From a virus, in IMG/VR virus record IMGVR_UViG_3300035698_005646, positions 1-36,626 of that record: 36,626 nucleotides of DNA, one strand, 5' to 3'. Shown in pieces: positions 14,868 to 33,188 of the stretch. A model generated the notes under the pieces. It was not told the DNA's origin. It searched no databases and saw only the letters and a list, made by a program, of their open reading frames with translations. Numbering within the stretch: the first letter of the stretch is position 1; each line of letters begins with the position of its first letter. Made by a program: the position numbers and the translations under genes.

Positions 14868-15232
14868 GACACCCTCCCGAAGAACGCCTTGCAGCCCACA
14901 ACCGCTGGGGCGTTAGAGAGTCCTGACACCCTCACATAGGGCGTCACACTGCCGGGGAAGTAGAGGAGCGTAGTGCCGTTCGAGGATATGGTCGTGGAGG
15001 CGTCATTCGCATCCAGATTATCCCAGTTCGAGTTATCCAAGCCCCCCTCCGCGGTAACTACAAGCGTATTCACACTACTGAGCCCTGTAGCCACTATTTG
15101 GATGAACATGTCCCCGCACCATGGGCAGTACATCACCTCGGTCACTCCCCCCGTGATATCCAGCTCGATCGCTGCGTAGGTCGTGGGGTTCTCATATGAC
15201 TGCCCGCCATAAGTCAAGCCAACATTAATCAT
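14864..15232 (-). CDS. Strand-rich accessory structural protein, probable decoration protein
   Basis: A 122-residue protein with alternating strands and many Thr, Ser, Asn and Gly residues (LDITGGVTEVMYCPWCGDMF, VRVSGLSNAPAVVGCKAFFG). This composition is typical of virion decoration proteins. A single CPWC pair is present but there is no second pair to complete a zinc site. It overlaps both neighbours as ATGA, so it is coupled to the last sugar gene and to the fibre-like gene. Function is inferred from composition and place only. Confidence 0.5.
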   Translation of the reverse strand: MINVGLTYGGQSYENPTTYAAIELDITGGVTEVMYCPWCGDMFIQIVATGLSSVNTLVVTAEGGLDNSNWDNLDANDASTTISSNGTTLLYFPGSVTPYVRVSGLSNAPAVVGCKAFFGRVS

Positions 15233-16194: not shown

Positions 16195-17171
16195 ATGATC
16201 TTCCTGTCCCAGTAGGCCAAAAGGTCCGTGAGTGTCTGCTCCATGGGGATTTCCGGCTTCCATCCAGTGAGCTCCCGGAGCTTGGTGCTGTCCGGTATCT
16301 GCACGGGGATGTCGATGGGGCGCACAAAGGGCGGGTACACCTCGGTGGTGATACTGAGCCCGGCGATATCCACCATGGCATTCAGCCAATCCCCCATGGA
16401 CCCGATCTCGTCCCCACCCACGTTATAGCTCTCGCCGGCAGTAGCCTTCTGCATCAGCAGCGCATATGCCCTCACGCAATCCCGTACATCCATCACCACG
16501 CGCTTGCTAGCGAGCGTCCCCACCTTCACCACAGGACTTTGCAGCCCCTTCTTGATCCTGATGAGCTGGTAGGCATCCCCGGAGATGGAGAACGTGTAAC
16601 CGCGTCGGGGACCCGTGTGGGAGAATGCCCGGCTGTTGAATATCAGGAGGCCACGATGTCTCGCCCGCTCGGTCGCGTAGAGGTCGGCGGCGGCCTTGCT
16701 CACACCATACGGATTCACGGGGGCTATCGGATGGTTCTCGGTGATTGGCTGCTTGCCCTCATCCACAGCCCCATACACCTCGCTCGTGGAGCAGTTCAGC
16801 ATCATACAGTCTGGGCAGAACTGGTGCATCAACGTAATCAGGTTCACCGTGCCAAGCGCGTTGGTCACGAAGGTGCCCTGCGGGTCCTTGAAGCTCGTGG
16901 GAGGATGCGACTGTGCTCCCAGATGGTATATCTGATCGAAGCCCCTCTCCTTGAACACGCGGCGCATAGACTCCAGATCGTCCAGATTCCCATAGGCCCA
17001 CTTGAGCTCCCGGTACACGGCATCTGGCACAATATCGCGGATGTCATTCTGCCGCCCGTTCGATGCCCTTACCAGCCCATATATGCGTAGGCCGGGGGTG
17101 CGCTCCAGCAGATGGTTGGCCAGATGCGGTCCGGCGAATCCCGTCAGCCCCGTAATCAGCACATTTTTCAC
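16188..17171 (-). CDS. GDP-6-deoxy-D-mannose reductase-like (Rmd-type) NAD-dependent epimerase
   Basis: A 327-residue extended SDR protein. The nucleotide-binding motif is TGLTGFAG (7-14), and the active site has CSTSEVYG (127-134) and Tyr155-GVS-Lys159. The blocks NSRAFSHTGPRRG and KRVVMDVRDCVRAYALL are typical of Rmd-like reductases acting after Gmd. The expected reaction is reduction of GDP-4-dehydro-6-deoxymannose to GDP-D-rhamnose. It overlaps Gmd by 7 bases and the small gene upstream as ATGA. A second Gmd-like or epimerase role is possible, but pairing with Gmd makes Rmd the simplest reading. Confidence 0.82.
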   Translation of the reverse strand: MKNVLITGLTGFAGPHLANHLLERTPGLRIYGLVRASNGRQNDIRDIVPDAVYRELKWAYGNLDDLESMRRVFKERGFDQIYHLGAQSHPPTSFKDPQGTFVTNALGTVNLITLMHQFCPDCMMLNCSTSEVYGAVDEGKQPITENHPIAPVNPYGVSKAAADLYATERARHRGLLIFNSRAFSHTGPRRGYTFSISGDAYQLIRIKKGLQSPVVKVGTLASKRVVMDVRDCVRAYALLMQKATAGESYNVGGDEIGSMGDWLNAMVDIAGLSITTEVYPPFVRPIDIPVQIPDSTKLRELTGWKPEIPMEQTLTDLLAYWDRKIIC

Positions 17172-17503
17172 TTCGTATCCCTCTCTACCAGTTGGTCGAT
17201 CAGCTTGCTCATCCGCACGCGGATATCATTGAACTTCCGCACCCTGAGTGCCAATACACCCGCTATCACTGGGTCGCCATCCATCTTACCGCTGTGGATA
17301 GGTGCCTCATAATCCCAAATGGTGTTGTTGATCGTATACACCATATCCACCAGCTCGTCCCATGGGAGCTTCGGATGGGCGCGTCTCAGCTCGGACAGCC
17401 CAGCATTATACTTTCCAACCGCCACCATGTCCCCGTTATCCCGTGCCACATACAGCTTGGCTATTGTGAACTTATCTACCAAATCTCCAGGTGTCATGTG
17501 CAT
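17168..17503 (-). CDS. Small conserved protein of sugar-modification clusters
   Basis: A 111-residue helical protein beginning near MTPGDLVDKFTIAKLYVAR. The PG-[ED]-L-V-D-[RK] opening is one I associate with a small family found beside glycosyltransferases and sugar-nucleotide genes; no reaction is known to me. The start at 17503 is chosen because AGGGGG lies 6 bases upstream; 17497 is the alternative and gives an ATGA overlap. No membrane span or catalytic motif is visible. A regulatory or chaperone role for one of the neighbouring enzymes is possible but unsupported. Confidence 0.6.
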   Translation of the reverse strand: MHMTPGDLVDKFTIAKLYVARDNGDMVAVGKYNAGLSELRRAHPKLPWDELVDMVYTINNTIWDYEAPIHSGKMDGDPVIAGVLALRVRKFNDIRVRMSKLIDQLVERDTK

Positions 17504-18366
17504 GCCAATCCCCCTACCGCAAGCGCACTCCATAGTCCATCATAGTTCGTCACGGGTATGTGCCCGTAATAGCTTCCAGGGGAGCAATTCACGATCTCTA
17601 TCTTGTCGGGCTGGTACGTGAAATTCTTATTGAACCTCACTGTGCCAACACCCACCCCCGTGGCCCTGCGCTCGTTCTTAAAGAACTCTGGGTCATAGTA
17701 GGTGGCCAACATCTCCTGCTGGCTCCACCGAATGATCTCCTCCTCGGTCTTCCCCTCCATGGCCGGGTGCAGATAGCCATCGGCGCCGAACAGTATGAGC
17801 TTCTCCACCTTGGCCTTAATCAGCTCGTCCACAATCACCTCAAGCGAGATGGGGTAGGCGGGTCGGCAGAGGAGCCGCGGCATGAGGTAGAGCTGCTCCC
17901 CGTGGAAATCAATAAGCCATTCCCGGTCCACCGCATCCAACCATGTGAAGGCACACAACGTGGTCATGAGAAGGTGCTTGGCATCACGCGATACAAACTC
18001 CTTGAGGTCGGGGATACGCTTCGGGATATCCTGCTCGCTCATGCAGAATATGATATCGAAGCTGTTATCTATCTTGCCCAGGATACGCTTCTCGATCTGG
18101 CTGAACCTGTTCATCCCCATCCAGCACAGATCAAACTGGGCGAAGTCCTCAATCCGCTCCTCCAGCCCCTTAATCGACCCGCCATTGAGGCAGAGAGCCA
18201 CTGTACGGCCCCCAATCGTGTCTGTAAGCCTCTCGGTGCCCTCATCGCTCTCGCGTCCCGCACGCTTGGCCATGACCGCTATGGCGTCGTGATCTATGGG
18301 ATAAGTCCATGCTTCCGGCTTATTCATATTGGGCGTCACGAGAAAGTCTGTTGCTATCCGGCTCAT
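17494..18366 (-). CDS. DUF115-like putative glycan-related protein
   Basis: A 290-residue alpha/beta protein. Its glycine-rich loop ALCLNGGSIKGLEERI (~62-77), followed by LCWMGMNRF and later KLILFGADGYLHP, resembles the DUF115/MptE-like fold, also seen in the first domain of the fusion at 21734-23809. Such domains occur in capsule, LPS and flagellin glycosylation loci, and some may transfer sugars from nucleotide donors. The start at 18366 overlaps the radical SAM stop as ATGA. It could also be a distant glycosyltransferase. Reaction unknown; family placement is moderate. Confidence 0.6.
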   Translation of the reverse strand: MSRIATDFLVTPNMNKPEAWTYPIDHDAIAVMAKRAGRESDEGTERLTDTIGGRTVALCLNGGSIKGLEERIEDFAQFDLCWMGMNRFSQIEKRILGKIDNSFDIIFCMSEQDIPKRIPDLKEFVSRDAKHLLMTTLCAFTWLDAVDREWLIDFHGEQLYLMPRLLCRPAYPISLEVIVDELIKAKVEKLILFGADGYLHPAMEGKTEEEIIRWSQQEMLATYYDPEFFKNERRATGVGVGTVRFNKNFTYQPDKIEIVNCSPGSYYGHIPVTNYDGLWSALAVGGLACT

Positions 18367-19442
18367 GGATACCTCGCACACATGGGGTCATCATCGCTCA
18401 CGAATAGTCTCTCACACAATATACAGTGGTCCCCGATGCAGCACCGGGTAGTGCAGCGGCTCGGGGTGTCCCCATACAGTAGCTTCTTGTGGCCTTCCCC
18501 GCCCCAGAACTCCAATATCTCCGCGGGCCGCGGGCTGTGGGTGCCGAGCTTATACCGCTCCTGATAGTACTGGTCATCGCAGAAGTACACATTCCCATCC
18601 GTGGCGATGTGAATCCGGAGAGGGGCTCCATAGCACTGACTGAAATCCTTACTGTGCCCCATGTCCTCGTCAAATTTATGCGTGACCGTATAGACGTGGA
18701 AATCATCACTCTCCAGCCCATGGCACAACTCGAACTGCCGAAGCATCTGGTCCACGTTGAAGTCGGCCACGTCGAAGTGCTTCCCGGCCATGCCTTGGTG
18801 CTGCGTATCCATGGGGCGGGCCACAAAATCGTGCGCTCCCGCTTCCCTCGCCAGAATGCACGCCGTCATGAGCTCATGCTGATTATCAGGTGTGATGAGG
18901 AACTTGTACCCCACGTTGCAGCGCCCATCCTGAATGGCCATAGTGTGAATGTTATCCAGCACCTTATCGAAAGCATCTGCCCCCTTGAGGGCCTTGTAGG
19001 TGCGAGCGGTCCCCGCATCCACACTGATACCCGCCCACCGGCAAAGCTGGCCGATCTGCTCTGCGGTAGCACCATCACACACCCCGTTGGACAAGATGGC
19101 GGCATCCATGCCGAGGAGCGCATTGTACTGGAGCATCTCGGTGAAACGCGGATGAAATGTGGGCTCGCCACCGCCCGCCCATACCACTGCCTGCACCCCC
19201 CACTCCTTCAGGAACCGCAACACGTCCATCACATGTTCCGTAGTTAGCTCATGACCAGCCTTGCGATATCGGGCAGAGTTGCACCATTCACAGTTCAAGG
19301 GGCACTTGAGCGTCGGGTCTATCCGGGCCTGCACCGGCACCGGCACTATCCCCGCGGCGATCTGCTTGAACTGCTCCGTATACAGCAGCCCCTTCCACGG
19401 ATTGAAGCTGTTGAATGCGTTATTGTCAGCCCATTCCTTCAT
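18363..19442 (-). CDS. Radical SAM protein
   Basis: A 359-residue radical SAM enzyme. The [4Fe-4S]-binding motif is Cys47-PLN-Cys51-EW-Cys54. GGGEPT (90-95) is the SAM-binding GGE-type motif. The C-terminal part has further cysteines (SQCYGAP, VYFC, then C330, C334, C335, C340, C343, C355) that suggest a SPASM/twitch-like extra cluster. The family carries out radical chemistry such as methylation, epimerisation or peptide modification. Within this cassette it may change a sugar or a protein side chain. Starts and stops overlap neighbours as ATGA. The substrate cannot be read from the sequence. Confidence 0.88.
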   Translation of the reverse strand: MKEWADNNAFNSFNPWKGLLYTEQFKQIAAGIVPVPVQARIDPTLKCPLNCEWCNSARYRKAGHELTTEHVMDVLRFLKEWGVQAVVWAGGGEPTFHPRFTEMLQYNALLGMDAAILSNGVCDGATAEQIGQLCRWAGISVDAGTARTYKALKGADAFDKVLDNIHTMAIQDGRCNVGYKFLITPDNQHELMTACILAREAGAHDFVARPMDTQHQGMAGKHFDVADFNVDQMLRQFELCHGLESDDFHVYTVTHKFDEDMGHSKDFSQCYGAPLRIHIATDGNVYFCDDQYYQERYKLGTHSPRPAEILEFWGGEGHKKLLYGDTPSRCTTRCCIGDHCILCERLFVSDDDPMCARYP

Positions 19443-20065
19443 GCCGTATCCCCCGAATCATATGCTTCCTGCGCAGTGATGTGCATAAGTATTTTGAACT
19501 TATCAGGAGCAAATAGCCCCGTCTCTATCCCCTCAGTGTTCCCTGCGGCGAATTGCGCCTTCCACCATTTGATCGGCTTAACAGTCTTGTGAGCTTCCAC
19601 ATACATAGGGTCGTCCTCCACACTTATACAGTGGAGCATCTTCCCCTTGGTGACCCGATACAGCTCACGTATGGATGCCTCCACCGCTTCCGTGGGGATG
19701 TGCTCCATTACGTCGAACGAGAAGGTGTAGTCAAACTCATTGTCCTCAAAGGGCATATCCCAGATAGGCGCTTCCGTGAACGAGCAAGTGGGGAGAAATT
19801 CATCATACTCGCTGCCCGTTTTCCGCTGGGACCCCAGACCCGCCAATGAAATGTCCACCCCGACACAATTCCGATCCAGACTGCATAATAGCCGTGTTGG
19901 GTCACCATGCCCACACCCGATATCGAGCAACTTATCCTTAGGTTGTGACGTGGCCGCGATATACCCAGCTATTTCGCGCCAATACCCCGTCGTATCACAG
20001 CAACGGCCATCATATAGCCGATCATAAAGCTCTTTTTCCGCCGTGGCAATCGCCTTAATGCTCAT
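19439..20065 (-). CDS. Class I SAM-dependent methyltransferase (third paralogue)
   Basis: A 208-residue Rossmann methyltransferase with motif I LLDIGCGHG (~45-53), GVDISLAGL, then AP-WDMPFEDNEFDYTFSFDV and MEHIPTE. The blocks MPF-D--FD, EH-P-E, YRVTK and TVKP--WW are shared with the domains at 20639-21403 and in the C-terminus of 21734-23809, so the three are paralogues. An N-terminal segment (ELYDRLYD...TTGYW) is also shared. Likely role: O- or N-methylation of a sugar. It is coupled to both neighbours by ATGA overlaps. Confidence 0.85.
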   Translation of the reverse strand: MSIKAIATAEKELYDRLYDGRCCDTTGYWREIAGYIAATSQPKDKLLDIGCGHGDPTRLLCSLDRNCVGVDISLAGLGSQRKTGSEYDEFLPTCSFTEAPIWDMPFEDNEFDYTFSFDVMEHIPTEAVEASIRELYRVTKGKMLHCISVEDDPMYVEAHKTVKPIKWWKAQFAAGNTEGIETGLFAPDKFKILMHITAQEAYDSGDTA

Positions 20066-20775
20066 CGTATCCCCACAGTCTCAGTGGTAACCCCCCACAA
20101 ATAGCCAGCTTTCTGTCGGGCCTTCCATATCTCGTTATCCCATATCTGCTTCTCACCGCGGTTGGCATAATGTGTCTCGTCCAGCGTACCACCGGGAGCG
20201 TTGGGGTGGAAGTGCTGCATCCGGCAGTTCTCGGCATATCGGAACCGTCCCACCTTCTTCGCATACAGCCCCATCTCCGTATCCACGTAGAAGCGGTAGT
20301 ATTCAGGGCAATATGCTTGTCCGGGCGGGAATCTCAGATGGAACTTCCTGCCCACAAATCGGAATCCCATCTGGGTGATCTTCTCCGGCCAGCTTGGGGG
20401 GTAGTTGGTGACATTGAACCCCAACAGCCCATCGCCATCAGGAAACTCCCTCCGCATTATATCCACGGCATTCGTGAGGCAGTCAGGGTCGAGGCTCGTG
20501 TCATCACACAGGAACAGCAGATAGTCCCCTTCGCTCTTGGCCACGAAGCTATTCCAACACGTACTCACCTTGCTGTAATCCGTTATCTCACAGCGTACCC
20601 GGCCGTCACCCTCCCACTGCTTCGCATACCGGAACAGCTCATTCTGGTCCGTGCAGAGAATGAACACTCTTACGTTTCCGTAGCTTCCGTTTAGCAGTGA
20701 TTCCACGCACACCTTGAGCTTTTCTGGACGGTGCCACGTGGGGATTGCCACGTCGATTCGTGGGCTTGCTTTCAC
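20062..20775 (-). CDS. GT2-family glycosyltransferase
   Basis: A 237-residue GT-A glycosyltransferase. It opens with the GT2 pattern IDVAIPTWHRPEKLKVCVES (residues 7-26) and has the metal/nucleotide motif LFLCDDTSLDPDC (~86-98), then YVDTEMGLYAKKVGRF. It would transfer a sugar from a nucleotide donor, plausibly the GDP-deoxyhexose made by the Gmd/Rmd pair. The start is a GTG at 20775 with GGGG 6 bases upstream; it lies 137 bases inside the upstream methyltransferase gene. The stop overlaps the next start as ATGA. Donor and acceptor are unknown. Confidence 0.85.
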   Translation of the reverse strand: MKASPRIDVAIPTWHRPEKLKVCVESLLNGSYGNVRVFILCTDQNELFRYAKQWEGDGRVRCEITDYSKVSTCWNSFVAKSEGDYLLFLCDDTSLDPDCLTNAVDIMRREFPDGDGLLGFNVTNYPPSWPEKITQMGFRFVGRKFHLRFPPGQAYCPEYYRFYVDTEMGLYAKKVGRFRYAENCRMQHFHPNAPGGTLDETHYANRGEKQIWDNEIWKARQKAGYLWGVTTETVGIR

Positions 20776-21403
20776 GCATTACCCCTTTCATAATGTGCTT
20801 CAGTTCTCCGTGATATCCGAGGAACTCTTGGGCTGTGACTATCATGCACCAAATCCCCCGCGAATTGTACTTCTCGAATTTCTTCCGCCACCACCACATG
20901 GGCTTCACGACCAGATGCAGCCCCTTCTCCCACTTGCTCTCCTGAGTGCTGACCACATGAACCATCCGATCCCGCGTAACCCTGAACATCTCCTTGATCG
21001 TGGCGTCCAGCATCTCCGGCGGCAGATGCTCCATAACATCCGAGGACATTGAGGTGTGGAATGCTCGATCCACGAATGGCATACGCCACAGAGGAGCTTT
21101 CTTGAAATGATCTGGGTCTATGGGGATCCATATAGGGTCTTCCTGTCGCGGGAGGAATTTGGTGGCACATCCCGCCAACGTAATATCCACACCCACTGCA
21201 TCCCGCTTCTTGAGCAGGAGACGCTTGACGGCCACTCCACACCCGCAGCCCATATCCAGTATCCGGTCCTGCTCCGGCGTTATCCATTCCGCCACCTCGC
21301 TGAACTGAGTCTGGTACCCCGTGGACCCATAATTCCGGGTGAATAGTTCGGTGTATTTCTCACGTTCCCTCTCCTCAATCGCTTTTATCCGTGCGGAGTC
21401 CAC
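20639..21403 (-). CDS. Class I SAM-dependent methyltransferase (second paralogue) with basic C-terminal tail
   Basis: A 254-residue methyltransferase: motif I ILDMGCGCG, GVDITLAG, APLWRMPFVDRAF, SSDVMEHLPPE and FRVTRD match the paralogues in this cassette. The start is a GTG at 21403 with GGAGG 7 bases upstream, inside the end of the cupin gene. After the domain ends (~residue 210) the frame runs on as a very basic tail (KAQGVRGITAKRKLRKRKSV) that overlaps the GT2 gene for 137 bases. The tail may be a by-product of a lost stop codon or a real binding segment. Confidence 0.82.
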   Translation of the reverse strand: MDSARIKAIEEREREKYTELFTRNYGSTGYQTQFSEVAEWITPEQDRILDMGCGCGVAVKRLLLKKRDAVGVDITLAGCATKFLPRQEDPIWIPIDPDHFKKAPLWRMPFVDRAFHTSMSSDVMEHLPPEMLDATIKEMFRVTRDRMVHVVSTQESKWEKGLHLVVKPMWWWRKKFEKYNSRGIWCMIVTAQEFLGYHGELKHIMKGVMRESKPTNRRGNPHVAPSRKAQGVRGITAKRKLRKRKSVHSLHGPE

Positions 21404-21737
21404 CCGAGACCCTCCGTTCTATGTCCACCCCATAATAGCGGTAATCGTATATCTCGATGCATTTGGTGTCTACCATCGCCTCAAACGAGTGCCAGATACC
21501 AACAGATATTGCTGTATCATCCCCAGCGAATAGGGTAAGGCCGTGCTCATGCCCATCAATATCCCACCAAGTAACCCTGAGCTCCCCCTCGATGACGTAG
21601 AAGACGTTCTCCTTGTGCTCATGGCGATGCTCCGAGCAGAATCCACCCGCTTTCACCTCGATGTAATGCGTGGAGGCAGCCCCATTTGCAAACAACTCAA
21701 TCGTGGTTCCCCACACTTTCTGCTCGGGCGGTTTCAT
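21375..21737 (-). CDS. Cupin-fold protein
   Basis: A 120-residue single cupin. Motif 1 is EHRHEHKENVFYVIEGEL, with His37, His39, His41 and Glu43 placed to bind a metal; motif 2 includes GIWHSFEA with His83. Cupins of this size in sugar clusters can isomerise sugars or bind sugar nucleotides, and the pattern is near that of the C-terminal domain of mannose-6-phosphate isomerase / GDP-mannose pyrophosphorylase. It could help supply the mannose precursor used by Gmd. It overlaps the fusion gene stop as ATGA. The exact substrate is not shown. Confidence 0.8.
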   Translation of the reverse strand: MKPPEQKVWGTTIELFANGAASTHYIEVKAGGFCSEHRHEHKENVFYVIEGELRVTWWDIDGHEHGLTLFAGDDTAISVGIWHSFEAMVDTKCIEIYDYRYYGVDIERRVSGGLRTDKSD

Positions 21738-23809
21738 TTGCCAACTCCCTCCATGAATATATTCCGTGGCATCACCTGTACCGCCAGCCCTTTGTGTGGT
21801 ATCCGATCAAATTGCTGGGTCCACCACTCCATGGGCTTCACGGTCATATGTAGGATCACGCCATTCCTGATCCCATCAAACAGCGCCACCACATGGAAAC
21901 TCTGGCGCTTCGTCACCCGATATATTTCAATGAGAGCCTTGGGTATCATCTCGGTAGGCACATGCTCCAGAACGTCCGTGCTCACCGTGTAATCGAACTG
22001 ATTGTCCTTGAAGGGCATATTCCACACAGGGGCCTCGACTATGCCCTGCATGTTATCCGGGATAGCAGCGAGCGTTATATCCACCCCCGTGGCATCCACA
22101 CCAGCCGCCCGCAGACCACGCACCGTATGGCCGTCTCCGCAACCAATATCGAGCACCTTGTCCCCCGGCTTCATCGTCTTGAGCACGGCGTTAATGAGGG
22201 GCTCTGCACATGCTGATTTGCTATACCCAATGCTATCCGTCCAACAATCATCGTATTTCCGCTTCTCTGTGACGGCGATCGGATCGGATGGGCCTGCCAC
22301 ATCACCCTGGTAGCGCCTACTCGCCTGTCTCTGCTCGATCACGGGATACCCCTCCTCTGCCATCGTGTCAAATATCTGGCAGTAACTCGCGGGAATATTA
22401 TGGAACCGCAGCTTCGCCTTCCAAGGCGCCAATACCCGCGCCATGGTCTGCATCTCGATGTGGTCCGGGTGCGCCTCATTCTCCGCAATCCACGCCCGTA
22501 CAAACGCCCTCACCGGCTCACAATTACGCAAATAGATTACTGCGTTGGCGAGCTGGTGGTCTCGGCGGTTGCCCTGCCCGTACTTGCTCCAATCAATCTC
22601 ATGCACCCCCAAGTCAAAGTCCGCATTATCAAACACCTCCGGGTACTGGTAGATGGAACTATCCACGTCCAGCCAAAGGATATTGCGGTCTGGGTACTTG
22701 AGCATCATGTCATGGATAAAGCGTGCCTTATACTGGGTATTGGCCTGCCACGAGCCAAGGGTGTCCATGGGCTGTATATCATGCTCCATGCCGAAGAGGT
22801 GGAGCTCACGTATGAGCCGCTCTGCCTCAGTCTGGTAGCCCGTGTTCTTGGTGAAGAAGCTCACCACCATAGGGCGGTCTGCCCTCCCAGTCAATGCCGT
22901 TCTGAGGTCTCCGAACGGGAAACACTTTAACGCCGACTTGGGGTTCAGATTCACAACACTGATTCCAGCAGACTTCAGTGTGGGCGCAAACCCTGTAATG
23001 GCTTCAATATACCGCTTGTAGATGCGTCCCCCGTAATCGTTGGGGTAACCCGGATGCCACCAATTCTGCTTACCACTCTTGGTCCCCCGCATATCAAATC
23101 CGAGGAGGTATATGGGGTTGGCCCCGAGGGCCGCCGCCAGATTGATCGCACCGTAGCCGGAGTTGTTCTTGAACGCCAGCCTGTCCGTGGTGCCAATGTC
23201 GAAACGGGAGGAGGCATCAATATTGATGAGGTAGAAATCCTCCGGGTACATCTTATGCACAGCCATCCACGCCTTATACCCCTTATACCCAGTGAAGCAG
23301 GCCTTCGCCCTATCCCCGAGTGTGCCCTGTTCCGCCCACCCGAAGAGCTGGCTATCCACGCCGTAGAGGATACTGGGGTCCACTGCCTCACACGCCCTGT
23401 TGATACCGATTACAAGCTCGCCATGGAGTCCATTGAGGTCTCTCCGGCGCAAACTGGGACCACCGCCGATAATGAAACATCGCCTGCCACTCCATACGCC
23501 ATCCGGTACATAGCTGGAGAACATCTTGGGGCCAAACTCGGGTGGGCGCGGAGCCACCGGCGATCCCGGTGTAAATCCTCTCCTGGCGACAATCTCAGAG
23601 CGTCTGCCTCGATGTCGCTCTGATGCTTTCCTGGGTCGGAGGTCAGATAGTGTGAGTATCTTGTTCTCCTGTCCCGGAGGAGCATCTCGTAGCTGACGAG
23701 GGCGCTTGTGGCGCGGCCCTATCTGGGACATCGTGAGGGGCTGTGTCGGCTCGTCGGACTCCACTGTAACCTTCTGCTTGCCTCTTTGCACATCACGCAT
23801 ACTGAGCAC
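21734..23809 (-). CDS. Three-domain fusion: DUF115-like + glycosyltransferase + methyltransferase
   Basis: A 691-residue protein and first gene of the sugar cassette. Residues 1-105 are Arg/Pro-rich and probably disordered. Residues ~108-300 are DUF115/MptE-like (CFIIGGGPSLRRRDLNG, VIGINRAC, IYLLGFDMRG). Residues ~313-500 look like a GT-A type transferase with a D-V-D motif at 381-383 (NILWLDVDSSIY). Residues ~515-691 are a class I methyltransferase with LDIGCGDG (553-560), paralogous to two stand-alone enzymes downstream. The GTG start has AAGGAGG 7 bases upstream. One protein could thus add and methylate a sugar. Domain calls are good; the reaction order is inference. Confidence 0.82.
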   Translation of the reverse strand: MLSMRDVQRGKQKVTVESDEPTQPLTMSQIGPRHKRPRQLRDAPPGQENKILTLSDLRPRKASERHRGRRSEIVARRGFTPGSPVAPRPPEFGPKMFSSYVPDGVWSGRRCFIIGGGPSLRRRDLNGLHGELVIGINRACEAVDPSILYGVDSQLFGWAEQGTLGDRAKACFTGYKGYKAWMAVHKMYPEDFYLINIDASSRFDIGTTDRLAFKNNSGYGAINLAAALGANPIYLLGFDMRGTKSGKQNWWHPGYPNDYGGRIYKRYIEAITGFAPTLKSAGISVVNLNPKSALKCFPFGDLRTALTGRADRPMVVSFFTKNTGYQTEAERLIRELHLFGMEHDIQPMDTLGSWQANTQYKARFIHDMMLKYPDRNILWLDVDSSIYQYPEVFDNADFDLGVHEIDWSKYGQGNRRDHQLANAVIYLRNCEPVRAFVRAWIAENEAHPDHIEMQTMARVLAPWKAKLRFHNIPASYCQIFDTMAEEGYPVIEQRQASRRYQGDVAGPSDPIAVTEKRKYDDCWTDSIGYSKSACAEPLINAVLKTMKPGDKVLDIGCGDGHTVRGLRAAGVDATGVDITLAAIPDNMQGIVEAPVWNMPFKDNQFDYTVSTDVLEHVPTEMIPKALIEIYRVTKRQSFHVVALFDGIRNGVILHMTVKPMEWWTQQFDRIPHKGLAVQVMPRNIFMEGVGK

Positions 23810-23829
23810 TCTCTTGCCTCCTTATTAAA

Positions 23830-23858
23830 CAGGGGGGCTGGCGGCGACAACCCCCCTG
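23830..23858 (-). terminator. Terminator-like hairpin after the major capsid gene
   Basis: On the minus strand, CAGGGGGG and CCCCCCTG form a perfect 8-bp GC-rich stem around a 13-base loop, followed by TGTTTAAT-like sequence with only a short run of T. It lies 27 bases after the capsid stop and just before the ribosome binding site of the sugar cassette. It may be a partial terminator that reduces transcription into the cassette relative to the capsid gene; the short T run argues for a weak one. Confidence 0.6.
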
Positions 23859-23884
23859 CCGGGCGTTACGCAATCACCACACGA

Positions 23885-24940
23885 TTATGCTGTGGCGCAG
23901 CGTACCAACTGTTTGAGTTCACCGACTGCACCGCCATACCGTTGCCATCCAACGGCAATATCGGAGTAGGCTTCGATGTCGAAATCGGAGAACACGGTGA
24001 GATCCATGCGATTCGCCCCCTTGAGCTTGTTCTTGGGGAAGATCACATAATAGACCGAGGACGAGGATAGCATGAGCGAGTAGAGTACACGCACATTGTA
24101 ATTGAGCTGCGACGTACTCGAAGCAAACGGCTGTTGCACCATGCCGAGCGCACGAGCGATCCTACCCTTGAGCTGGATTGGGGCGAGAAGGATAAACTCG
24201 CTCTGGGGTGTCACTCCCATACCCAGGTCCTGGAGCGCAATCAGGATGTTCTCACATGCCTTGTTGATCGTGTTGATATCCCGGATCGGCACGTAGTTCT
24301 CATTGGTGTTGGGAATCGCACCGGCAATCGCCTGCCATGCCAGATTATAGGTGGCGGCAGTCGCATCAAGCAGGTCGTAGAAGTCCTGCGCCTTGCTCTC
24401 ATACGCTTTGTTGCGGAACTCGAACGCATTGTCCTCGATGGTCCAGTATTCCTTGTCATCGAAGAGCCTCCGAGACCAGCCGAGACCAGCACCATACATA
24501 TCAAGCGTGACGCTGACCTTCACACCGGACATCTTGTAAATCTTGGCCTTCATGCCTTCAGGCACAAGGGCAAAGGTGAGGCCAGAGATCACATCGAGAA
24601 TATCGAACCCGTTACGGTTCGACGCTCTCATGTCCATCATGTTGAAGATTTGCTCGTATGCGGTGTCGAAGTAGAGAGCCTGATGGTACTTGTCGAGCAC
24701 CTCGATCACGCTGGCAGGGAAATCACCAGAAGTGGCGAATGCTTGTACCATCGCGGTACGTGCCGCCTCAGGGCTTCCGGTGGAAGTGAATGCCTGCGCC
24801 GCTGCTTGGAACGGAGCAGAGTTTGGCTGGGTCAGGAAGGAATTGAGCGCCCCCCTCACCAAGCCACGAGCTTGCGGGTTATCAATGCCACCCATACGCT
24901 CAACGAGTCCCCAGTCGGAGACAATGCTGCCTTTATACAT
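23885..24940 (-). CDS. Major capsid protein (HK97 fold)
   Basis: A 351-residue protein following the DUF2190-like gene with a 12-base gap; AAAGGAG lies 8 bases before the ATG. Length and order (portal, protease/scaffold, decoration, capsid) are those of lambda-like heads (lambda E is 341 residues). The sequence has a helical N-terminal arm region (FQAAAQAFTSTGSPEAARTA), a central domain (WQAIAGAIPNTNENYVPIRD) and a late strand-rich domain (SSSVYYVIFPKNKLKGANRM, SDFDIEAYSDIAVGWQRYGG). Assignment is by position, length and fold-like pattern. Confidence 0.85.
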   Translation of the reverse strand: MYKGSIVSDWGLVERMGGIDNPQARGLVRGALNSFLTQPNSAPFQAAAQAFTSTGSPEAARTAMVQAFATSGDFPASVIEVLDKYHQALYFDTAYEQIFNMMDMRASNRNGFDILDVISGLTFALVPEGMKAKIYKMSGVKVSVTLDMYGAGLGWSRRLFDDKEYWTIEDNAFEFRNKAYESKAQDFYDLLDATAATYNLAWQAIAGAIPNTNENYVPIRDINTINKACENILIALQDLGMGVTPQSEFILLAPIQLKGRIARALGMVQQPFASSTSQLNYNVRVLYSLMLSSSSVYYVIFPKNKLKGANRMDLTVFSDFDIEAYSDIAVGWQRYGGAVGELKQLVRCATA

Positions 24941-28170: not shown

Positions 28171-29661
28171 CTATTCTGGCGCCGTATCTTGTTTGGGCGT
28201 CCCAACAAACACCCCGCCGATCTCCGCCAACTTCGCCATCACGAAGTACCGAGTCTCGTCACACGTATGATTATTCTTATCCACCGGCTTGTCATTCTTC
28301 ACCGCGTACATCAGTATCTCCTGCCGGAAGTGTAGGCAGATGCGGTTCACCAATATCTTGGGTGCCCCCAACACTGGCTTGAGCGCACTCTTCACCCGTT
28401 CTATCCCCTCGTCGATGGTCTTTTTGTCCATGATCGTCATGGCGGCGTGGGGGAACGCTTCCCGCCACTCCTGAATGAGATCGGGCCGCGAGTTATCCGG
28501 TATAATCTCCTTGACGAGCCGCGCCCACGGGGCCTTCTTCGCCCGTTCAATTACGCGGGTGTTGGTGGTGGATTCCTCCGCTGACTGCATATAGAGCTCA
28601 GTCACCCGTATCCATGTGCCAGCTCCCCCAAGCTCATCCGGCGCTTGCTGCCACACCCCCACGCTGAACGGGTCCACCCCGCCGAAGTCCACACTCAGCA
28701 CCACGGGGGTATCCCGCAGGTCCACGCTCACCAGATGCACGTCCTCGTCCCATTCCTGCTCATACACGGTGTCCCCAAGCCCCACCTTGATGCAGAGCCA
28801 GTCGCGGGAGAGCATGGACATGGAGAGGGTGTGGAGCTTCTGGATGAAGTCATCCACCGTATAGTACCCGTCCGCCCCCTTCATCTGCTCACCGGGGCAT
28901 ATTGAGGTGAGGGGGCATGTGGAGCAGGAATAGTCCCTGCACGACGCCATGCATTCCCAGATGCAGTAGCGGTATATGCTGTGGCCGCGGGATTCCGCAT
29001 TGGCTATTGCCCGGTCCATCTGGCCCATGACATGGTGGTTGGTGGAGAACATGCCCAGCACCGCCTTGTGGCCAAACTTACTCGTGGGCTGGGAGAGCGC
29101 ATCCTGATAGATTTGCTCGTCGATCTCATCCACCTCGTCGAGCTTAAGGGCTTGGGGATGGGGTCCGCGCACCGAGGTGCGGCTAGCGGTCAGGATGCTC
29201 ACTTCGCTCTTGTTCAGGAACTCCGCCCGGCTCTGCATGATGTCGCGGGTGAGGCGGGTATTGAGTGGGTCGGTCTCATCCCGGAATATCTTCATGGCCT
29301 GATAGCTCAGGAGGGACTGATCCCTACTGCCACCGAGGATTTTGGTCTCATACCGTGCCTTGGAGCAGCTCTTGACCCACGCATCAAGGCCGCCGTACAG
29401 GAACGTCTTGCTCCCGGACCGGCATGCCCAAATGATGTAATACTGCACCACGTCCCTGAGGACATCGGAGACGGCCCGGAACTGGCTGCAATGGTCTGGG
29501 TTACCACAGAGGCGCTTGGTGCCCACTATGGCCACCTGAAGGGCCGCTAAGAACTCCAGCACATCGAGATCAGTCAGCATCCCCTCGTTCAGGAACTTCT
29601 GTAAAATCTGCTTCCTCACTGCCTCCCGCAACCGGCCTATCTCCTCCAGGGTCATTGCCAC
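28171..29661 (-). CDS. Terminase large subunit
   Basis: A 496-residue packaging ATPase/nuclease. Walker A variant ACRSGSKTF (79-87), Walker B LKLDEVDE (173-180), coupling-type STNH (206-209), and a nuclease domain starting VLSVDFGGVDP with Asp325, then DETRYFVMAKL near the end. An unusual cysteine cluster lies between them (C237, C241, C246, C249, C255). The start is a GTG at 29661 with AAAGGA 7 bases upstream; it overlaps the small subunit by 92 bases. ATG 29655 or 29580 are alternatives. It cuts and pumps genome DNA into the prohead. Confidence 0.9.
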   Translation of the reverse strand: MAMTLEEIGRLREAVRKQILQKFLNEGMLTDLDVLEFLAALQVAIVGTKRLCGNPDHCSQFRAVSDVLRDVVQYYIIWACRSGSKTFLYGGLDAWVKSCSKARYETKILGGSRDQSLLSYQAMKIFRDETDPLNTRLTRDIMQSRAEFLNKSEVSILTASRTSVRGPHPQALKLDEVDEIDEQIYQDALSQPTSKFGHKAVLGMFSTNHHVMGQMDRAIANAESRGHSIYRYCIWECMASCRDYSCSTCPLTSICPGEQMKGADGYYTVDDFIQKLHTLSMSMLSRDWLCIKVGLGDTVYEQEWDEDVHLVSVDLRDTPVVLSVDFGGVDPFSVGVWQQAPDELGGAGTWIRVTELYMQSAEESTTNTRVIERAKKAPWARLVKEIIPDNSRPDLIQEWREAFPHAAMTIMDKKTIDEGIERVKSALKPVLGAPKILVNRICLHFRQEILMYAVKNDKPVDKNNHTCDETRYFVMAKLAEIGGVFVGTPKQDTAPE

Positions 29662-30184
29662 CAGTCAGTCCTTTCATCATGGCGATACGCTCTTCCTGAG
29701 ACATGCCGCCCATATACATGTTGAACTCTTTGATGCTAGTGCCTTGATCCTTGCGGGAGGCACTAGGCCCATTCTCGCCCACGAGCTTGCCGTAGGTTTC
29801 CATGAATTTACGGTAGGCTTCCACGAACTTGGTGAGCTGGTCGAGGTCTTTCACCTTCACCGTGGGAGTGAACTTGCCCCCTTTGCCCTCGGTGAATGCG
29901 CTGTCGATGAGGGACTCCATCTGGAGTAAGACCCTGAGCATCTTGCGACCTACGGGGGTATCCACCCGAACCATAGTGCCCTCCTCCTTCAATTGGGCTA
30001 TTCCCCCCTCGTGGTCCTGCACCCGCTCCTCCCACTTGAAGTTCTTGGCCCAACGCGCCACGGAATCCGGTGATGCCCCCACACGCCGTGCCACCTCCCG
30101 ATATGTGCGGCCAAAGCCAAGGTCGCGGTATTCCTCAAAGGCTTCCAGATGTCGTTGGCGTTCAATTTGTGGTTGATGGCTCAT
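29570..30184 (-). CDS. Terminase small subunit
   Basis: A 204-residue protein with an N-terminal helix-turn-helix (YREVARRVGASPDSVARWAK, ~28-47), a central helical oligomerisation part (LLQMESLIDSAF, VEAYRKFMETYGKLVGE) and a Gly/Glu/Asp-rich acidic tail. This is the usual layout of DNA-recognising small terminase subunits, and it is directly followed by the large subunit. Its start overlaps the polymerase stop as ATGA, so packaging and replication genes are coupled. Recognition of the packaging site is the expected role. Confidence 0.82.
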   Translation of the reverse strand: MSHQPQIERQRHLEAFEEYRDLGFGRTYREVARRVGASPDSVARWAKNFKWEERVQDHEGGIAQLKEEGTMVRVDTPVGRKMLRVLLQMESLIDSAFTEGKGGKFTPTVKVKDLDQLTKFVEAYRKFMETYGKLVGENGPSASRKDQGTSIKEFNMYMGGMSQEERIAMMKGLTGGNDPGGDRPVAGGSEEADFTEVPERGDAD

Positions 30185-30933
30185 GCTGCCCCCTCATATG
30201 CGTGTAAATCCTTCCAGTTCTTCCCCACCTCGCAGTCCACCTTCACCGGCACCGTAAGCTCCACTGCGGTCTCCATAATCCCCCGGAACTGGGGCGCGAT
30301 CACCGGCAACCATTCATCCTCCACCTCGAAGATCAGCTCATCGTGAATTTGAAGCAATGGGCGGCACACAACGCCAAAATCGTTCTGCCATTGGTTTACG
30401 ACTGGGGTGAGCCGCACCATCGCCTCTTTCAGTATCCCACCCGCGCCACTCTGGATGGGCGCATTCACTGCCTGTCTGATCCCGGCCTCACGGATATAGG
30501 AGAGCGCTGAGTTCAACTCCGGAACCCAACGTGGTCGCCCAAACATATCCCTTACCATGCCGGTGCGCCGCGCTTCCGCCTTGATCTCCTCCACCCAGTC
30601 AAAGAACCCTGGATAGTTCTGCCGCCAGCTATCGAGGAATGCTTGGCAGTCCCGTTCGGTGAACTCCGTGAGGCCCTCATGCTGGAATGCTGCCACCAGC
30701 CCCTTGGCGCTTATCAGGTAGATGGTGCCAAAGTTCGTGGTCTTGGCTGGCCGCCTATGCGCCTTGTCATCTATCTCCCCCTCGGGCAACCCAAACATCG
30801 CCATCGCCGTCTCCATATGAATATCGCCATCGTTATGGTAGATGTCAAGCATACGCGGGTCCTGCGACTCGTGGGCGGCTACACGCAGCTCGATCTGGCT
30901 ATAATCAAGGGCGAGGAAGGAGCACTCAATCAC
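30181..30933 (-). CDS. Family A DNA polymerase, C-terminal part (palm/fingers catalytic half)
   Basis: A 250-residue protein holding the catalytic core. Motif A is LALDYSQIELR (Asp10), motif B is RRPAKTTNFGTIY (Arg60, Lys64, Phe68), and motif C is LQIHDEL (His197, Asp198, Glu199). All catalytic residues are kept. It begins with a GTG overlapping the previous stop as GTGA, with GGGGAG 6 bases before it. It lacks the thumb and exonuclease, which are encoded at 31160-32377. The two products together cover a normal polymerase I Klenow-type sequence, so a two-chain active enzyme is expected. No trace of an intein or intron was seen. Confidence 0.93.
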   Translation of the reverse strand: MIECSFLALDYSQIELRVAAHESQDPRMLDIYHNDGDIHMETAMAMFGLPEGEIDDKAHRRPAKTTNFGTIYLISAKGLVAAFQHEGLTEFTERDCQAFLDSWRQNYPGFFDWVEEIKAEARRTGMVRDMFGRPRWVPELNSALSYIREAGIRQAVNAPIQSGAGGILKEAMVRLTPVVNQWQNDFGVVCRPLLQIHDELIFEVEDEWLPVIAPQFRGIMETAVELTVPVKVDCEVGKNWKDLHAYEGAA

Positions 30934-31163
30934 GATGGTCTCCCCGGATTCAGTGGTGGTGTTGGCGTCGCTTGGGCAAAGTGCCGTTGCAGCTCAGGAG
31001 AGAACTGATCATATCCTACTTGAGGCGCCGCAATCCTCAAGGTCTGGAGCAGTTCCACCACCTCGGCCAGCGTGATATCATCCTCTGGTATAAACACGTA
31101 CATCTTGGGCTGATTGATGGCGAGCCTATCGCCTTGCGGTAACATGATGCGCTTGCCTGTCAT
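30930..31163 (-). CDS. Unknown 77-residue protein between the two polymerase halves
   Basis: A small protein with MYVFIPEDDITLAEVVELLQ (21-40; a strand then an acidic helix) and a Pro-rich C-terminus (ATPTPPLNPGRPS). It starts as ATGA over the stop of the exonuclease half, with AGGAG upstream, and ends as GTGA over the start of the catalytic half. It has no HNH, GIY-YIG or LAGLIDADG motif and does not resemble polymerase sequence. Coupling suggests equal production with the two polymerase chains, so it could be a bridging or processivity partner; that is inference only. Confidence 0.75.
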   Translation of the reverse strand: MTGKRIMLPQGDRLAINQPKMYVFIPEDDITLAEVVELLQTLRIAAPQVGYDQFSPELQRHFAQATPTPPLNPGRPS

Positions 31164-32377
31164 CCCTCACTCCTCTCGCTTACAAATGCCTGTCGTATCC
31201 GTCTCCCCAACTCAGTCCGCACCGGAATGTTCTGCTCGTTTGGATTGCTGCTGGCCAGCCTCCCGGTCTCGGTGCGTGTCGTGGAGAGCGTCGTGTGTAT
31301 ACGTCCATCACTGCCGATCTTCTTCATGAGGCCGCGCACATAGGTGGACTGGAGCTTCGTGTACGCCCGGTAGTCCTGTATCCGGCCCACAATGGGATGG
31401 GTGCGGTACTGATCGAGCACGGAGGCATCGGTGGAGGTCTCCATGTCTGTGTATATCCCTTTGTCCTGAAGCAGCGCCACCACCTGCTGGCTGCTCCGCG
31501 GGTTCACATACTGCCCGGCGAGGTAATTGATATCCGCTTGGGTGTTTTTGGTCAGCTCGTCCAAGTCCTGCCCCAACTCCTCCAGCACCGCAAGGTCCAC
31601 CAGCACCCCATTATCCTCCATCGCCATGATCATGGGGAGCACCCCCATATCGCGCTCCAGCGTCTCCTGTAGGCCCAACTCGGCAATTCGGGTGTGCAGA
31701 TAGGGGTAGATGGCAAACGTGGCATCAGCATCGAGGCAGGCGTACTCCTCGGCCACTACCGGGTCCACCTCATCAAGGTATGCGCGGTCCAGCCTGCCGA
31801 GGGTTGCATCGGCTCCCCCGTCCATGCCATCCGCCACCCACTTCTTCCATGCCGCATAGAGATCAGCGAAGGGGTCGCCTATGTGCCTGAGTAGCAACTT
31901 CTCCACCTTGCCTGTAATGTTCTTGGGGAAGGAGAACTTGACCTCGCCGGCCGCATCGATGAGCATGATGGGGTCTGGGTCGGGCCAGTCGTTCGCCACC
32001 ACCTTCAGCAGAAAAGCGTAGGCTTTAGCCTGTGTGGCATCGTGGGTCACCTCAGCGAACGTGCGCATCTCGATACCGGCGATGCGGTAGGCCAACACCT
32101 TCAGGCTGAGGGCGGGCTCCCCCAAGAGGTAAGCCATCTGCATAGTGCATTCGGAATGGGCTGGGTGGATACCACATTGCCCGAGCACCCGGAGGTCGAA
32201 CTTGGCATTGTGGAGAATGGTGAGGGTGTCCGGGGCTTCCAGTAGCCCGCATACGGCAAGCGTATCATCTTGGTTGTCGCAGTACCATATCGCCCCACGC
32301 GGATGATCCTCGTCGGCTGTCTGGATGCTCCATGGCTCCCCCCTCACGGTCTCGGTATCGACAGCAATCACCCGCAT
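31160..32377 (-). CDS. Family A DNA polymerase, N-terminal part (3'-5' exonuclease and thumb)
   Basis: A 405-residue protein. The proofreading exonuclease has Exo I VDTET (Asp7, Glu9), Exo II HNAKFDL (Asp61) and Exo III YACLDAD (Tyr212, Asp216). The thumb/early palm region follows (NPRSSQQVVALL ~292-303; YTKLQSTYVRG; TTRTETGRLASSNPNEQNIP ~366-385). It stops at GRRIRQAFVSERSEG, immediately before the motif A strand of an intact enzyme. AGGAG lies 6 bases before the ATG. It is the upstream half of a polymerase continued at 30181-30933. Confidence 0.93.
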   Translation of the reverse strand: MRVIAVDTETVRGEPWSIQTADEDHPRGAIWYCDNQDDTLAVCGLLEAPDTLTILHNAKFDLRVLGQCGIHPAHSECTMQMAYLLGEPALSLKVLAYRIAGIEMRTFAEVTHDATQAKAYAFLLKVVANDWPDPDPIMLIDAAGEVKFSFPKNITGKVEKLLLRHIGDPFADLYAAWKKWVADGMDGGADATLGRLDRAYLDEVDPVVAEEYACLDADATFAIYPYLHTRIAELGLQETLERDMGVLPMIMAMEDNGVLVDLAVLEELGQDLDELTKNTQADINYLAGQYVNPRSSQQVVALLQDKGIYTDMETSTDASVLDQYRTHPIVGRIQDYRAYTKLQSTYVRGLMKKIGSDGRIHTTLSTTRTETGRLASSNPNEQNIPVRTELGRRIRQAFVSERSEG

Positions 32378-32613
32378 CGCGCACTCCTCTTGATCTCCCT
32401 TACGGCCATGCGGAACGGCCTACCCATATTGACCTGCACTACTACACGACCCACGAAACCCCCAATGCCGAGCTCATGGCAAGCACACCACGCCTCAATC
32501 CCCGGCATAGCTTGCCGTAGCCACTCCTCACGTATACGGCCATCCACGAGTGCTTGCTGTATGAGTTCCTCCGTTGATCCGATGAAATACTGATAGCCGG
32601 CGTAATCCATCAT
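32368..32613 (-). CDS. Small hypothetical protein between UDG and polymerase
   Basis: An 81-residue protein, MMDYAGYQYFIGSTEELIQQ onwards, with a helical centre (EEWLRQAMPGIEAWCACHEL) and a strand-like, basic C-terminus (GRVVVQVNMGRPFRMAVREI). The start at 32613 overlaps the UDG stop, with GGAGG 8 bases upstream; the stop overlaps the polymerase start by 10 bases. I do not recognise it. Its place suggests a role in replication or repair. Confidence 0.65.
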   Translation of the reverse strand: MMDYAGYQYFIGSTEELIQQALVDGRIREEWLRQAMPGIEAWCACHELGIGGFVGRVVVQVNMGRPFRMAVREIKRSARCG

Positions 32614-33188
32614 CGTCTCTCCCTCCACATCACACTCTCATCCCCCCTCACCATCTGCCCGAAGTGCTCGAAGTCGTCCATCACGTGCAGCATCATTGCG
32701 GTGTTATGCAAGGCGTAAGCTGGATGGTAGAGTGGCATCACCAGGTAATCCAACCACTCATAGCCGAACCCATGCACCTTCTCCATGCGCACATCCGGCC
32801 CCAGCACCCACCGGGTGGCAATGCTCCCGATCAGCCCCAGATACCGCGGCTGCACCGCCGCCAGCTCCGCCCACAGCAATCCGCTACACGCAGCTATCTC
32901 GGCCACCGTGGGATCCCGGTCCTTCTCATTGGTGCGGCATTTCACCACATTGGTCACATACACGTTCTCCCGATACACTCGGGCAGACCGCTTGAGGTAA
33001 TTGCGATCGAGCTCCACCCCGCTTTTGCCACAGAACGGCTTCCCCTTCTTGTCCTCGGTCTCACCAGGGGCTTCCCCTATGAACATAATGGAGCAGGGGA
33101 CGGGGCCATTCCCCTCCACCCGGTTCAGGCGGGTCATTGGGCATCCGAGGCGCTGGTGGTCGGGGCATCCTCTGAGCTTACGGTTCAT
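32610..33188 (-). CDS. Uracil-DNA glycosylase, family 4/5-like (Fe-S type)
   Basis: A 192-residue UDG-superfamily protein. Motif 1 is IGEAPGETED (38-47) with GKPFCGKSG after it, and motif 2 is LYHPAY (153-158). Cysteines 8, 16, 84 and 101 can form the [4Fe-4S] site seen in family 4 enzymes, though the first pair is spaced wider than the usual C-X2-C. It removes uracil from DNA, or acts as a related domain in replication; some phage polymerases (SPO1 type) carry such a domain fused. Here it is separate, two genes before the polymerase. Start overlaps the upstream stop as ATGA. Confidence 0.88.
   Translation of the reverse strand: MNRKLRGCPDHQRLGCPMTRLNRVEGNGPVPCSIMFIGEAPGETEDKKGKPFCGKSGVELDRNYLKRSARVYRENVYVTNVVKCRTNEKDRDPTVAEIAACSGLLWAELAAVQPRYLGLIGSIATRWVLGPDVRMEKVHGFGYEWLDYLVMPLYHPAYALHNTAMMLHVMDDFEHFGQMVRGDESVMWRERR

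What the first reader, a model, noticed from the sequence alone, without database searches (positions are those of the whole stretch)
30181..32377. Family A DNA polymerase divided into two coupled genes just before motif A
The first gene ends GRRIRQAFVSERSEG* and the second begins with the strand leading to LALDYSQIELR. In E. coli Pol I the matching stretch is continuous (RRIRQAF...DYSQIELR). The break thus lies inside the polymerase domain, not at the usual exonuclease/polymerase border, yet all Exo I-III and A, B, C catalytic residues remain. Both junctions have good Shine-Dalgarno sequences and 4-base overlaps, so this looks settled and functional, not a recent mutation. A polymerase assembled from two chains, split next to the active site, would be noteworthy.
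Basis: partly seen in the sequence, partly recalled or inferred. Interest (0 to 1): 0.88.

Follow-up and report, generated by a model that had tools for sequence, protein, structure and literature searches.

The report
Phage DNA polymerase split in two
This phage makes its DNA-copying enzyme as two separate proteins cut right beside the active site, with a small unrelated gene lying between them; its relatives share the cut but carry different genes there, and a second phage lineage has evolved the same cut independently.

Summary
On the minus strand, a family A DNA polymerase is encoded by an N-terminal gene (32377..31160, 405 aa) and a C-terminal gene (30933..30181, 250 aa). A 77-aa gene (31163..30930) lies between them and overlaps each by 4 bases. 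The halves match complementary parts of the Pfam model (3-149 and 152-381 of 381), so no piece is missing. The cut falls in the turn before motif A, near Taq 600/601. It is not a sequencing error: five relatives from other metagenomes (76-78% identical C-halves) are cut at the same place. Their middle genes differ from the window's and mostly from each other. Both halves are under purifying selection (dN/dS about 0.03-0.19). More distant relatives carry one intact ORF that also includes the neighbouring uracil-DNA glycosylase domain. An unrelated lineage, the published OM43 phages MEP401/402 and kin, has the same cut; all 76 loci examined are split, and 14 have nothing between the halves. A tree gives two independent origins. 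Most likely this is a stable two-chain polymerase, originally broken by an inserted mobile gene and now used as a slot for small cargo genes. Split phage polymerases are known, so this is a new variant of a known kind. Activity is inferred, not shown.

The parts
31160..32377 (-). Polymerase N-half, 405 aa: 3'-5' exonuclease, thumb and first part of the palm, ending GRRIRQAFVSERSEG
   Evidence: PF01612 E 7e-13 and PF00476 positions 3-149, E 4e-35; dN/dS 0.10-0.19 where computable
30930..31163 (-). 77-aa cargo gene between the halves, function unknown
   Evidence: No Pfam or PHROG match; homologue only in the same slot of L002 (40% over 65 aa, E 3e-12)
30181..30933 (-). Polymerase C-half, 250 aa: motif A onwards (fingers and rest of palm, motifs A, B, C); GTG start
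   Evidence: PF00476 positions 152-381, E 1e-64; model aligns from residue 1 to Bst 644-863 (Z 20.2) and Taq 601-818
31160..31174 (-). Junction 1: AGGAG ribosome site (31174-31170) and ATGA stop/start overlap (31163-31160)
30930..30943 (-). Junction 2: GGAG ribosome site (30943-30940) and GTGA stop/start overlap (30933-30930)
32610..33188 (-). Uracil-DNA glycosylase gene, 192 aa; fused to the polymerase in intact relatives
   Evidence: PF03167 E 1e-28; fused in L007, L019, L020, L021
32368..32628 (-). 86-aa cargo gene between glycosylase gene and N-half: a second slot; overlaps the N-half start
   Evidence: No informative family hit; different genes in this slot in relatives
29570..30184 (-). 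Terminase small subunit, overlaps the C-half stop by 4 bases
   Evidence: phrog_6299 E 1e-12
28171..29661 (-). Terminase large subunit
   Evidence: phrog_10250 E 3e-12

Best explanation
The phage's family A DNA polymerase is a two-chain enzyme. The N-chain (exonuclease, thumb, start of palm) and the C-chain (motif A onwards) are translated one after another from one mRNA by stop-start coupling through the small gene between them. They fold together without a covalent link at an exposed turn just before the strand that carries the motif A aspartate. The chains would share one active site: the metal-binding aspartates and the O-helix come from the C-chain, and the arginine of TGRL plus the thumb come from the N-chain, so neither chain should polymerise alone. 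The break probably arose when a mobile gene of homing-endonuclease type inserted at this conserved site. Once the split was tolerated, the gap became a gene junction in which small cargo genes come and go. Shown: the gene structure, the shared break, changing cargo, selection on both halves, two independent origins, and split forms with no insert in the other lineage. Inferred: assembly, activity, and the homing-endonuclease origin.
For: Complementary Pfam coverage with no missing segment. Same break in L001-L005 and L009+L002, with cargo that is mostly unrelated between loci. Low dN/dS on both halves with saturated synonymous sites. In all six cases the last cargo stop overlaps the C-half start by 4-8 bases, whatever the cargo. 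Breaks align in one turn, near Taq 600/601. Tree: split needs two changes in all bootstraps; the window clade is nested among intact UDG-polymerase fusions, the MEP401 clade is sister to intact HMO-2011-type polymerases. 76 of 76 MEP401-lineage loci are split, 14 with no insert; Alcaligenes phage QDWS535 also has none, TAATG. Mobile-gene origin: one relative carries an endonuclease in the slot (phrog_3322, E 8e-29); the small HTH cargos of L003-L005 rank the C-terminal part of an HNH endonuclease family first (E 2e-7 to 1e-5); L004 keeps a duplicated start of the C-half beside its cargo. Known analogues with activity shown: split gp43 of Aeromonas phage 25 and split NrdA of phage Aeh1 (PMC2988022).
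Against: No biochemical data. AlphaFold models of the separate halves are of middling to low confidence (pLDDT 69 and 65, shallow alignments), and no two-chain model could be run. The no-insert forms are in the other lineage; every member of the window clade has an insert. The HTH cargo match to endonucleases is weak, and such domains are common.
Confidence: 0.82

Rival explanations
1. The insert is a self-splicing intron (group I), and the mature mRNA encodes one continuous polymerase. This was suggested for MEP401/402 by their authors.
For: Phage polymerase genes often carry group I introns. A SPO1-like phage (Goe26) has its polymerase interrupted near this site, about 30-40 codons upstream, with an endonuclease ORF in the gap. 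The Rfam scan found nothing there either, so a negative Rfam result is weak evidence.
Against: No Rfam intron in the window or relatives. Slot DNAs share no common core, only short junction matches and the HTH coding similarity. Inserts are almost fully coding, with stops and starts overlapping both halves and ribosome sites at the starts. In the other lineage the same split exists with a 1-base overlap and no insert, or with 26-52 nt, too short for an intron.
Confidence: 0.07
2. Programmed ribosomal frameshifting or bypassing joins the two frames into one protein.
For: Known in phages in principle (T4 gene 60 bypass; own knowledge).
Against: The frame relation of N- and C-half differs between close relatives: offset 1 in the window and L011, 0 in L010 and L012 (coordinates), and all three offsets occur in the other lineage. 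Inserts range from none to more than 600 nt. Each C-half has its own start codon; ribosome sites vary in strength.
Confidence: 0.03
3. The halves are joined after translation by a split intein.
For: A relative (L010) has an intein, but in the neighbouring glycosylase gene.
Against: The N-half stops within a few residues of the last alignable polymerase residue, and the C-half starts a few residues before the next one; there is no room for intein halves.
Confidence: 0.01
4. The polymerase is a decaying pseudogene, or the split is an assembly error.
For: The record is a metagenomic virus contig with no isolate.
Against: Same break in contigs from five other samples; dN/dS about 0.03-0.19; all catalytic residues kept.
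Confidence: 0.02
5. The middle gene product is itself a polymerase subunit that holds the halves together.
For: It is co-translated with both halves; MEP401 and 402 also have a 77-aa gene in the slot, in a family found in 41 ORFs of that lineage.
Against: In the window clade the middle genes are mostly unrelated between relatives; in the other lineage the insert can be absent. So a middle protein cannot be generally required.
Confidence: 0.06

Closest known systems
Split family A polymerase of OM43 phages MEP401/MEP402 (PMC10580990; OP830906, OP830907)
   Same: Exonuclease plus N part of PF00476 in one gene, C part in another, a 77-aa unknown gene between, break in the same turn before motif A.
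   Different: A separate polymerase clade with its own origin of the split; middle protein not detectably related to the window's; no glycosylase neighbour reported; the authors suggested an intron, and the passages read do not mention the no-insert forms found here.
Split PolB gp43 (43A/43B) of Aeromonas phages 25 and 44RR (cited in PMC2988022)
   Same: Replicative phage polymerase in two genes with an endonuclease gene or spacer between; the two chains of phage 25 co-purify and are active.
   Different: Family B, unrelated polymerase and break.
Genes-in-pieces NrdA of phage Aeh1 split by mobE (PMC2988022)
   Same: Essential enzyme split by a homing endonuclease at a functionally critical region; activity retained.
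   Different: Ribonucleotide reductase, not a polymerase.
LUZ24-type polymerase parts (NC_010325, PMC3890496)
   Same: Family A polymerase divided into genes with several small ORFs between.
   Different: First break separates the exonuclease from the polymerase (510-nt exonuclease gene), not before motif A.
Group I intron-interrupted polymerases of SPO1-like phages
   Same: Interruption by an endonuclease-bearing element close to motif A (Goe26).
   Different: Known there as a spliced intron (own knowledge); site about 30-40 codons upstream; here no spliced intron is indicated.

Membership tests
Family A DNA polymerase (PF00476) | Whole polymerase domain present | tested here: met
   Positions 3-149 in the N-half and 152-381 in the C-half of a 381-position model
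Family A DNA polymerase (PF00476) | Motifs A, B, C and exonuclease residues conserved | tested here: met
   Invariant in alignments A1 and A2 apart from the exo I strand and some motif positions, all read directly in the window sequence
Family A DNA polymerase (PF00476) | Polymerase activity | not testable with these tools
   Needs co-expression and assay
Genes-in-pieces phage enzymes | Intact homologue in relatives, split into separately translated, conserved ORFs | tested here: met
   Intact in L007, L019, L020, L021; split in the window and its close relatives
Genes-in-pieces phage enzymes | Homing endonuclease at or near the break | tested here: inconclusive
   Absent in the window; HTH cargos weakly like HNH endonuclease C-terminus; an endonuclease in the slot of one locus of the other lineage
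Genes-in-pieces phage enzymes | Fragments assemble into active enzyme | not testable with these tools
MEP401-type split polymerase | Break in the turn before motif A | tested here: met
   Alignment
MEP401-type split polymerase | Common descent of the split | tested here: not met
   Two separate starred clades, each with intact nearest neighbours
Group I intron | Conserved RNA core matching a known family | tested here: inconclusive
   No Rfam match, but the same search also found nothing in the Goe26 polymerase gap
Split intein | Intein halves at the ends of the two chains | tested here: not met
   Chains end and begin within a few residues of alignable polymerase

The most novel reading that the evidence does not exclude
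The turn before motif A is a recurrent break point at which family A polymerases tolerate division into two chains. Phages of unrelated lineages exploit it as a permanent cargo slot: small, quickly exchanged genes (possibly host take-over or counter-defence genes) are guaranteed co-expression with, and physical linkage to, the replicative polymerase.
Probability: 0.3. Interest if true: 0.78.

Novelty: new variant of a known kind. Interest (0 to 1): 0.62.

Why it matters
If the two chains assemble, this is a natural two-subunit version of the Pol I fold cut next to its active site, evolved at least twice at the same turn. It identifies a cut that the most studied polymerase fold tolerates, useful for making split or switchable polymerases. 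It also offers a direct test of how homing-type insertions turn an essential gene into a stable split gene. The exchangeable genes in the gap are candidates for short phage proteins that must be made together with the replication machinery. It is a warning for annotation too: phages with this layout can look as if they lack a complete polymerase.

Tried and rejected
Group I or II intron: Rfam on the window and 13 loci, negative; a check on the SPO1-like phage Goe26 showed the search is not sensitive enough to exclude one, so the case rests on insert-free and short-insert relatives and on coding inserts. Frameshift or bypass: frame offsets differ among relatives. Split intein: no room. Assembly error or pseudogene: contradicted by relatives and dN/dS. 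Identifying the 77-aa protein: no Pfam, PHROG or convincing phage hit; the best phage tblastn hits had E 0.2-1. AlphaFold of the N-half was too uncertain to use (pLDDT 65, pTM 0.34). The TerL search found one relative (L058) whose stretch upstream of TerS holds no polymerase gene. A scan with the QDWS535 C-half found nothing more. No nucleotide-level relative among deposited phages. The genome-contig scan gave only intact bacterial-type polymerases at 39% identity or less among the loci looked at.

Full report
OBSERVATION. The polymerase is on the minus strand. The N-half (32377..31160, 405 aa) ends GRRIRQAFVSERSEG*. A 77-aa ORF (31163..30930) follows with a 4-base ATGA overlap, then the C-half (30933..30181, 250 aa, GTG start) with a 4-base GTGA overlap. 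AGGAG and GGAG ribosome sites lie 6 nt before the two downstream starts. Pfam DNA_pol_A matches positions 3-149 in the N-half (E 4e-35) and 152-381 in the C-half (E 1e-64) of a 381-position model, so nothing is missing. Exonuclease residues D7/E9, D61, Y212/D216 and polymerase residues D10 (motif A), R60/K64/F68/Y72 (motif B) and H197/D198/E199 (motif C) are present. PDB sequence alignments put the end of the N-half at Taq 602 and residue 6 of the C-half at Taq 606. The structural alignment of the C-half model starts at Taq 601 and Bst 644, with Z up to 20.2 and rmsd 3.8 over 220 residues. The break is therefore in the turn before the strand carrying the motif A aspartate.

CLOSE RELATIVES. 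The window is an IMG/VR virus record. Seven loci encode relatives of the C-half. L001-L005 (76-78% identical) come from five other metagenome samples. They have the same break wherever both sides are held, and every C-half starts as a separate ORF. L009 and L002 are two contigs of one sample whose ends share the same ~100 bases. The gap contents differ: L001/L010 a 96-aa gene; L002 a homologue of the window's 77-aa protein (40% over 65 aa, E 3e-12) plus a 69-aa gene; L003 an HTH ORF plus a cysteine-rich 120-aa gene; L004 an HTH ORF, a remnant and a 121-aa gene; L005 a 60-aa gene and an HTH ORF. In all six loci including the window, the last cargo stop overlaps the C-half start, by 4 bases in the window and 8 in the others. 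Synonymous sites are saturated or nearly so; dN/dS is 0.03-0.14 for the C-half and 0.10-0.19 for the N-half where it can be computed. Both halves have been under purifying selection for a long time since the split.

A THREE-PIECE GENE. In more distant relatives (L007, L019, L020, L021; 44-49% in the C-half) one ORF of about 870-907 aa carries a glycosylase domain, the exonuclease and the whole polymerase. In the window clade the glycosylase is a separate gene (32610-33188). A second variable slot (here the 86-aa gene 32368-32628) lies between it and the N-half. L006 (57-58%) is split at another place, about 50 codons upstream, with a DNA methyltransferase gene in the gap, so that cut is a separate event or a moved one.

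A SECOND LINEAGE. The OM43 phages MEP401 and MEP402 were reported with a polymerase in two genes around a 77-aa ORF, and an intron was suggested (PMC10580990). Their break (..KTLFLSRYGE* / MILNADAKALEW) aligns with the window's. A scan for that C-half gave 80 loci. In the 76 with both halves, all are split: 10 by a 1-base TAATG overlap and 4 by a 17-base overlap with no insert, 8 with 1-60 nt, 10 with 61-150, 39 with 151-300 and 5 with more than 300 nt between (the script's 'intact' flag for four loci was a frame artefact of the 17-base overlap, since the halves are in different frames there). Alcaligenes phage QDWS535 likewise has two polymerase genes joined by TAATG with no insert. One locus, L137, has an endonuclease gene in the slot (phrog_3322, E 8e-29). 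Because split forms exist with nothing between the halves, an intron cannot explain the split in that lineage.

PHYLOGENY. A 35-row maximum-likelihood tree (415 columns) needs two changes between split and intact, in all 200 bootstrap trees tested. The window clade plus L006 (96/93) is nested with intact glycosylase-polymerase fusions (95/90). The MEP401/QDWS535 clade (100/99) is sister to intact HTVC033P, HMO-2011 and CRP-1 (100/100). The same turn was thus broken at least twice.

MECHANISM. Shown: gene order, overlaps, ribosome sites, shared break, changing cargo, selection, two origins. Inferred from the fold: motif A, motif C and O-helix residues come from the C-chain, while the TGRL arginine and thumb come from the N-chain, so both are needed for one active site. 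Inferred: assembly without a covalent bond. Known parallels with activity shown are the split gp43 of Aeromonas phage 25 and the split NrdA of Aeh1, the latter caused by homing endonuclease insertion (PMC2988022). For a mobile-gene origin here there are three hints: the endonuclease in L137; HTH ORFs in three relatives whose best PHROG match is the C-terminal region of an HNH endonuclease family (E 2e-7 to 1e-5); and L004, where a 45-nt copy of the C-half start is left between two cargo genes. That copy is closer to L003's C-half start (38/45) than to L004's own (34/45), which suggests exchange between phages.

RIVALS. Intron: no Rfam match, but the same method found nothing in the Goe26 polymerase gap, so this is weak; the stronger points are the coding inserts with overlaps at both ends and the insert-free forms. 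Frameshift: frame offset is 1 in the window and L011 but 0 in L010 and L012 (coordinates). Split intein: no sequence for it. Middle protein as subunit: not generally possible, since it changes or is absent.

NOVELTY. Split phage polymerases, including one at this very site, are published. New here, as far as the papers searched show, are an independent case in another polymerase clade, the convergence on one turn, insert-free forms, and the exchangeable cargo. I therefore call it a new variant of a known kind. Function of the assembled enzyme remains to be tested.

Noticed in passing
L010:3799-5409: The separate uracil-DNA glycosylase gene of this relative contains an in-frame intein with a LAGLIDADG endonuclease (Pfam LAGLIDADG_2 E 1e-15, Intein_splicing E 2e-9), inserted after NLVKC.
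   Followed up: partly
L006:2911-5747: Polymerase split at a different place (thumb, about 50 codons upstream of the window's break) with an N6/N4 DNA methyltransferase gene in the gap.
   Followed up: partly
L004:1795-1850: A duplicated, truncated start of the C-half (MINCSLLALDYSQIE..) remains between two cargo genes, apparently the trace of an insertion.
   Followed up: partly
window 31160-31176 and 32375-32390; L010 7217, L011 7202, L002 293, L003 139, L058 5853: A near-identical 16-nt junction (A[AG]AGGAGTGA[AG]TGATG or close), combining ribosome site, stop and start, recurs at cargo junctions and is rare elsewhere in these loci (pattern chosen after seeing the sites). It explains why N-halves end in SERSE.
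   Followed up: partly
L010:9558-9890, L003:152-511, L011:7215-7394: The same cysteine-rich small protein family sits in the polymerase slot of L003, apparently truncated in L011 (weak match, E 0.004), and downstream of the C-half in L010, so cargo seems to move between slots.
   Followed up: partly
window 14000-24000, minus strand: A cluster of probable glycosylation genes in a phage: nucleotide-sugar epimerase (15229-16389), radical SAM protein (18363-19442), and a 691-aa protein with a sialyltransferase-like and a methyltransferase domain (21734-23809).
   Followed up: no
PHROG families 12241, 2573: Known phage protein families that end or begin within about 20 residues of this break, suggesting further split or interrupted polymerases.
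   Followed up: no
L153 3527-4378 (Bacillus phage Goe26): The polymerase gene gap with an endonuclease ORF, where SPO1 relatives carry a group I intron (own knowledge), gives no Rfam match at E 0.01: a negative Rfam result is weak evidence against phage introns.
   Followed up: partly
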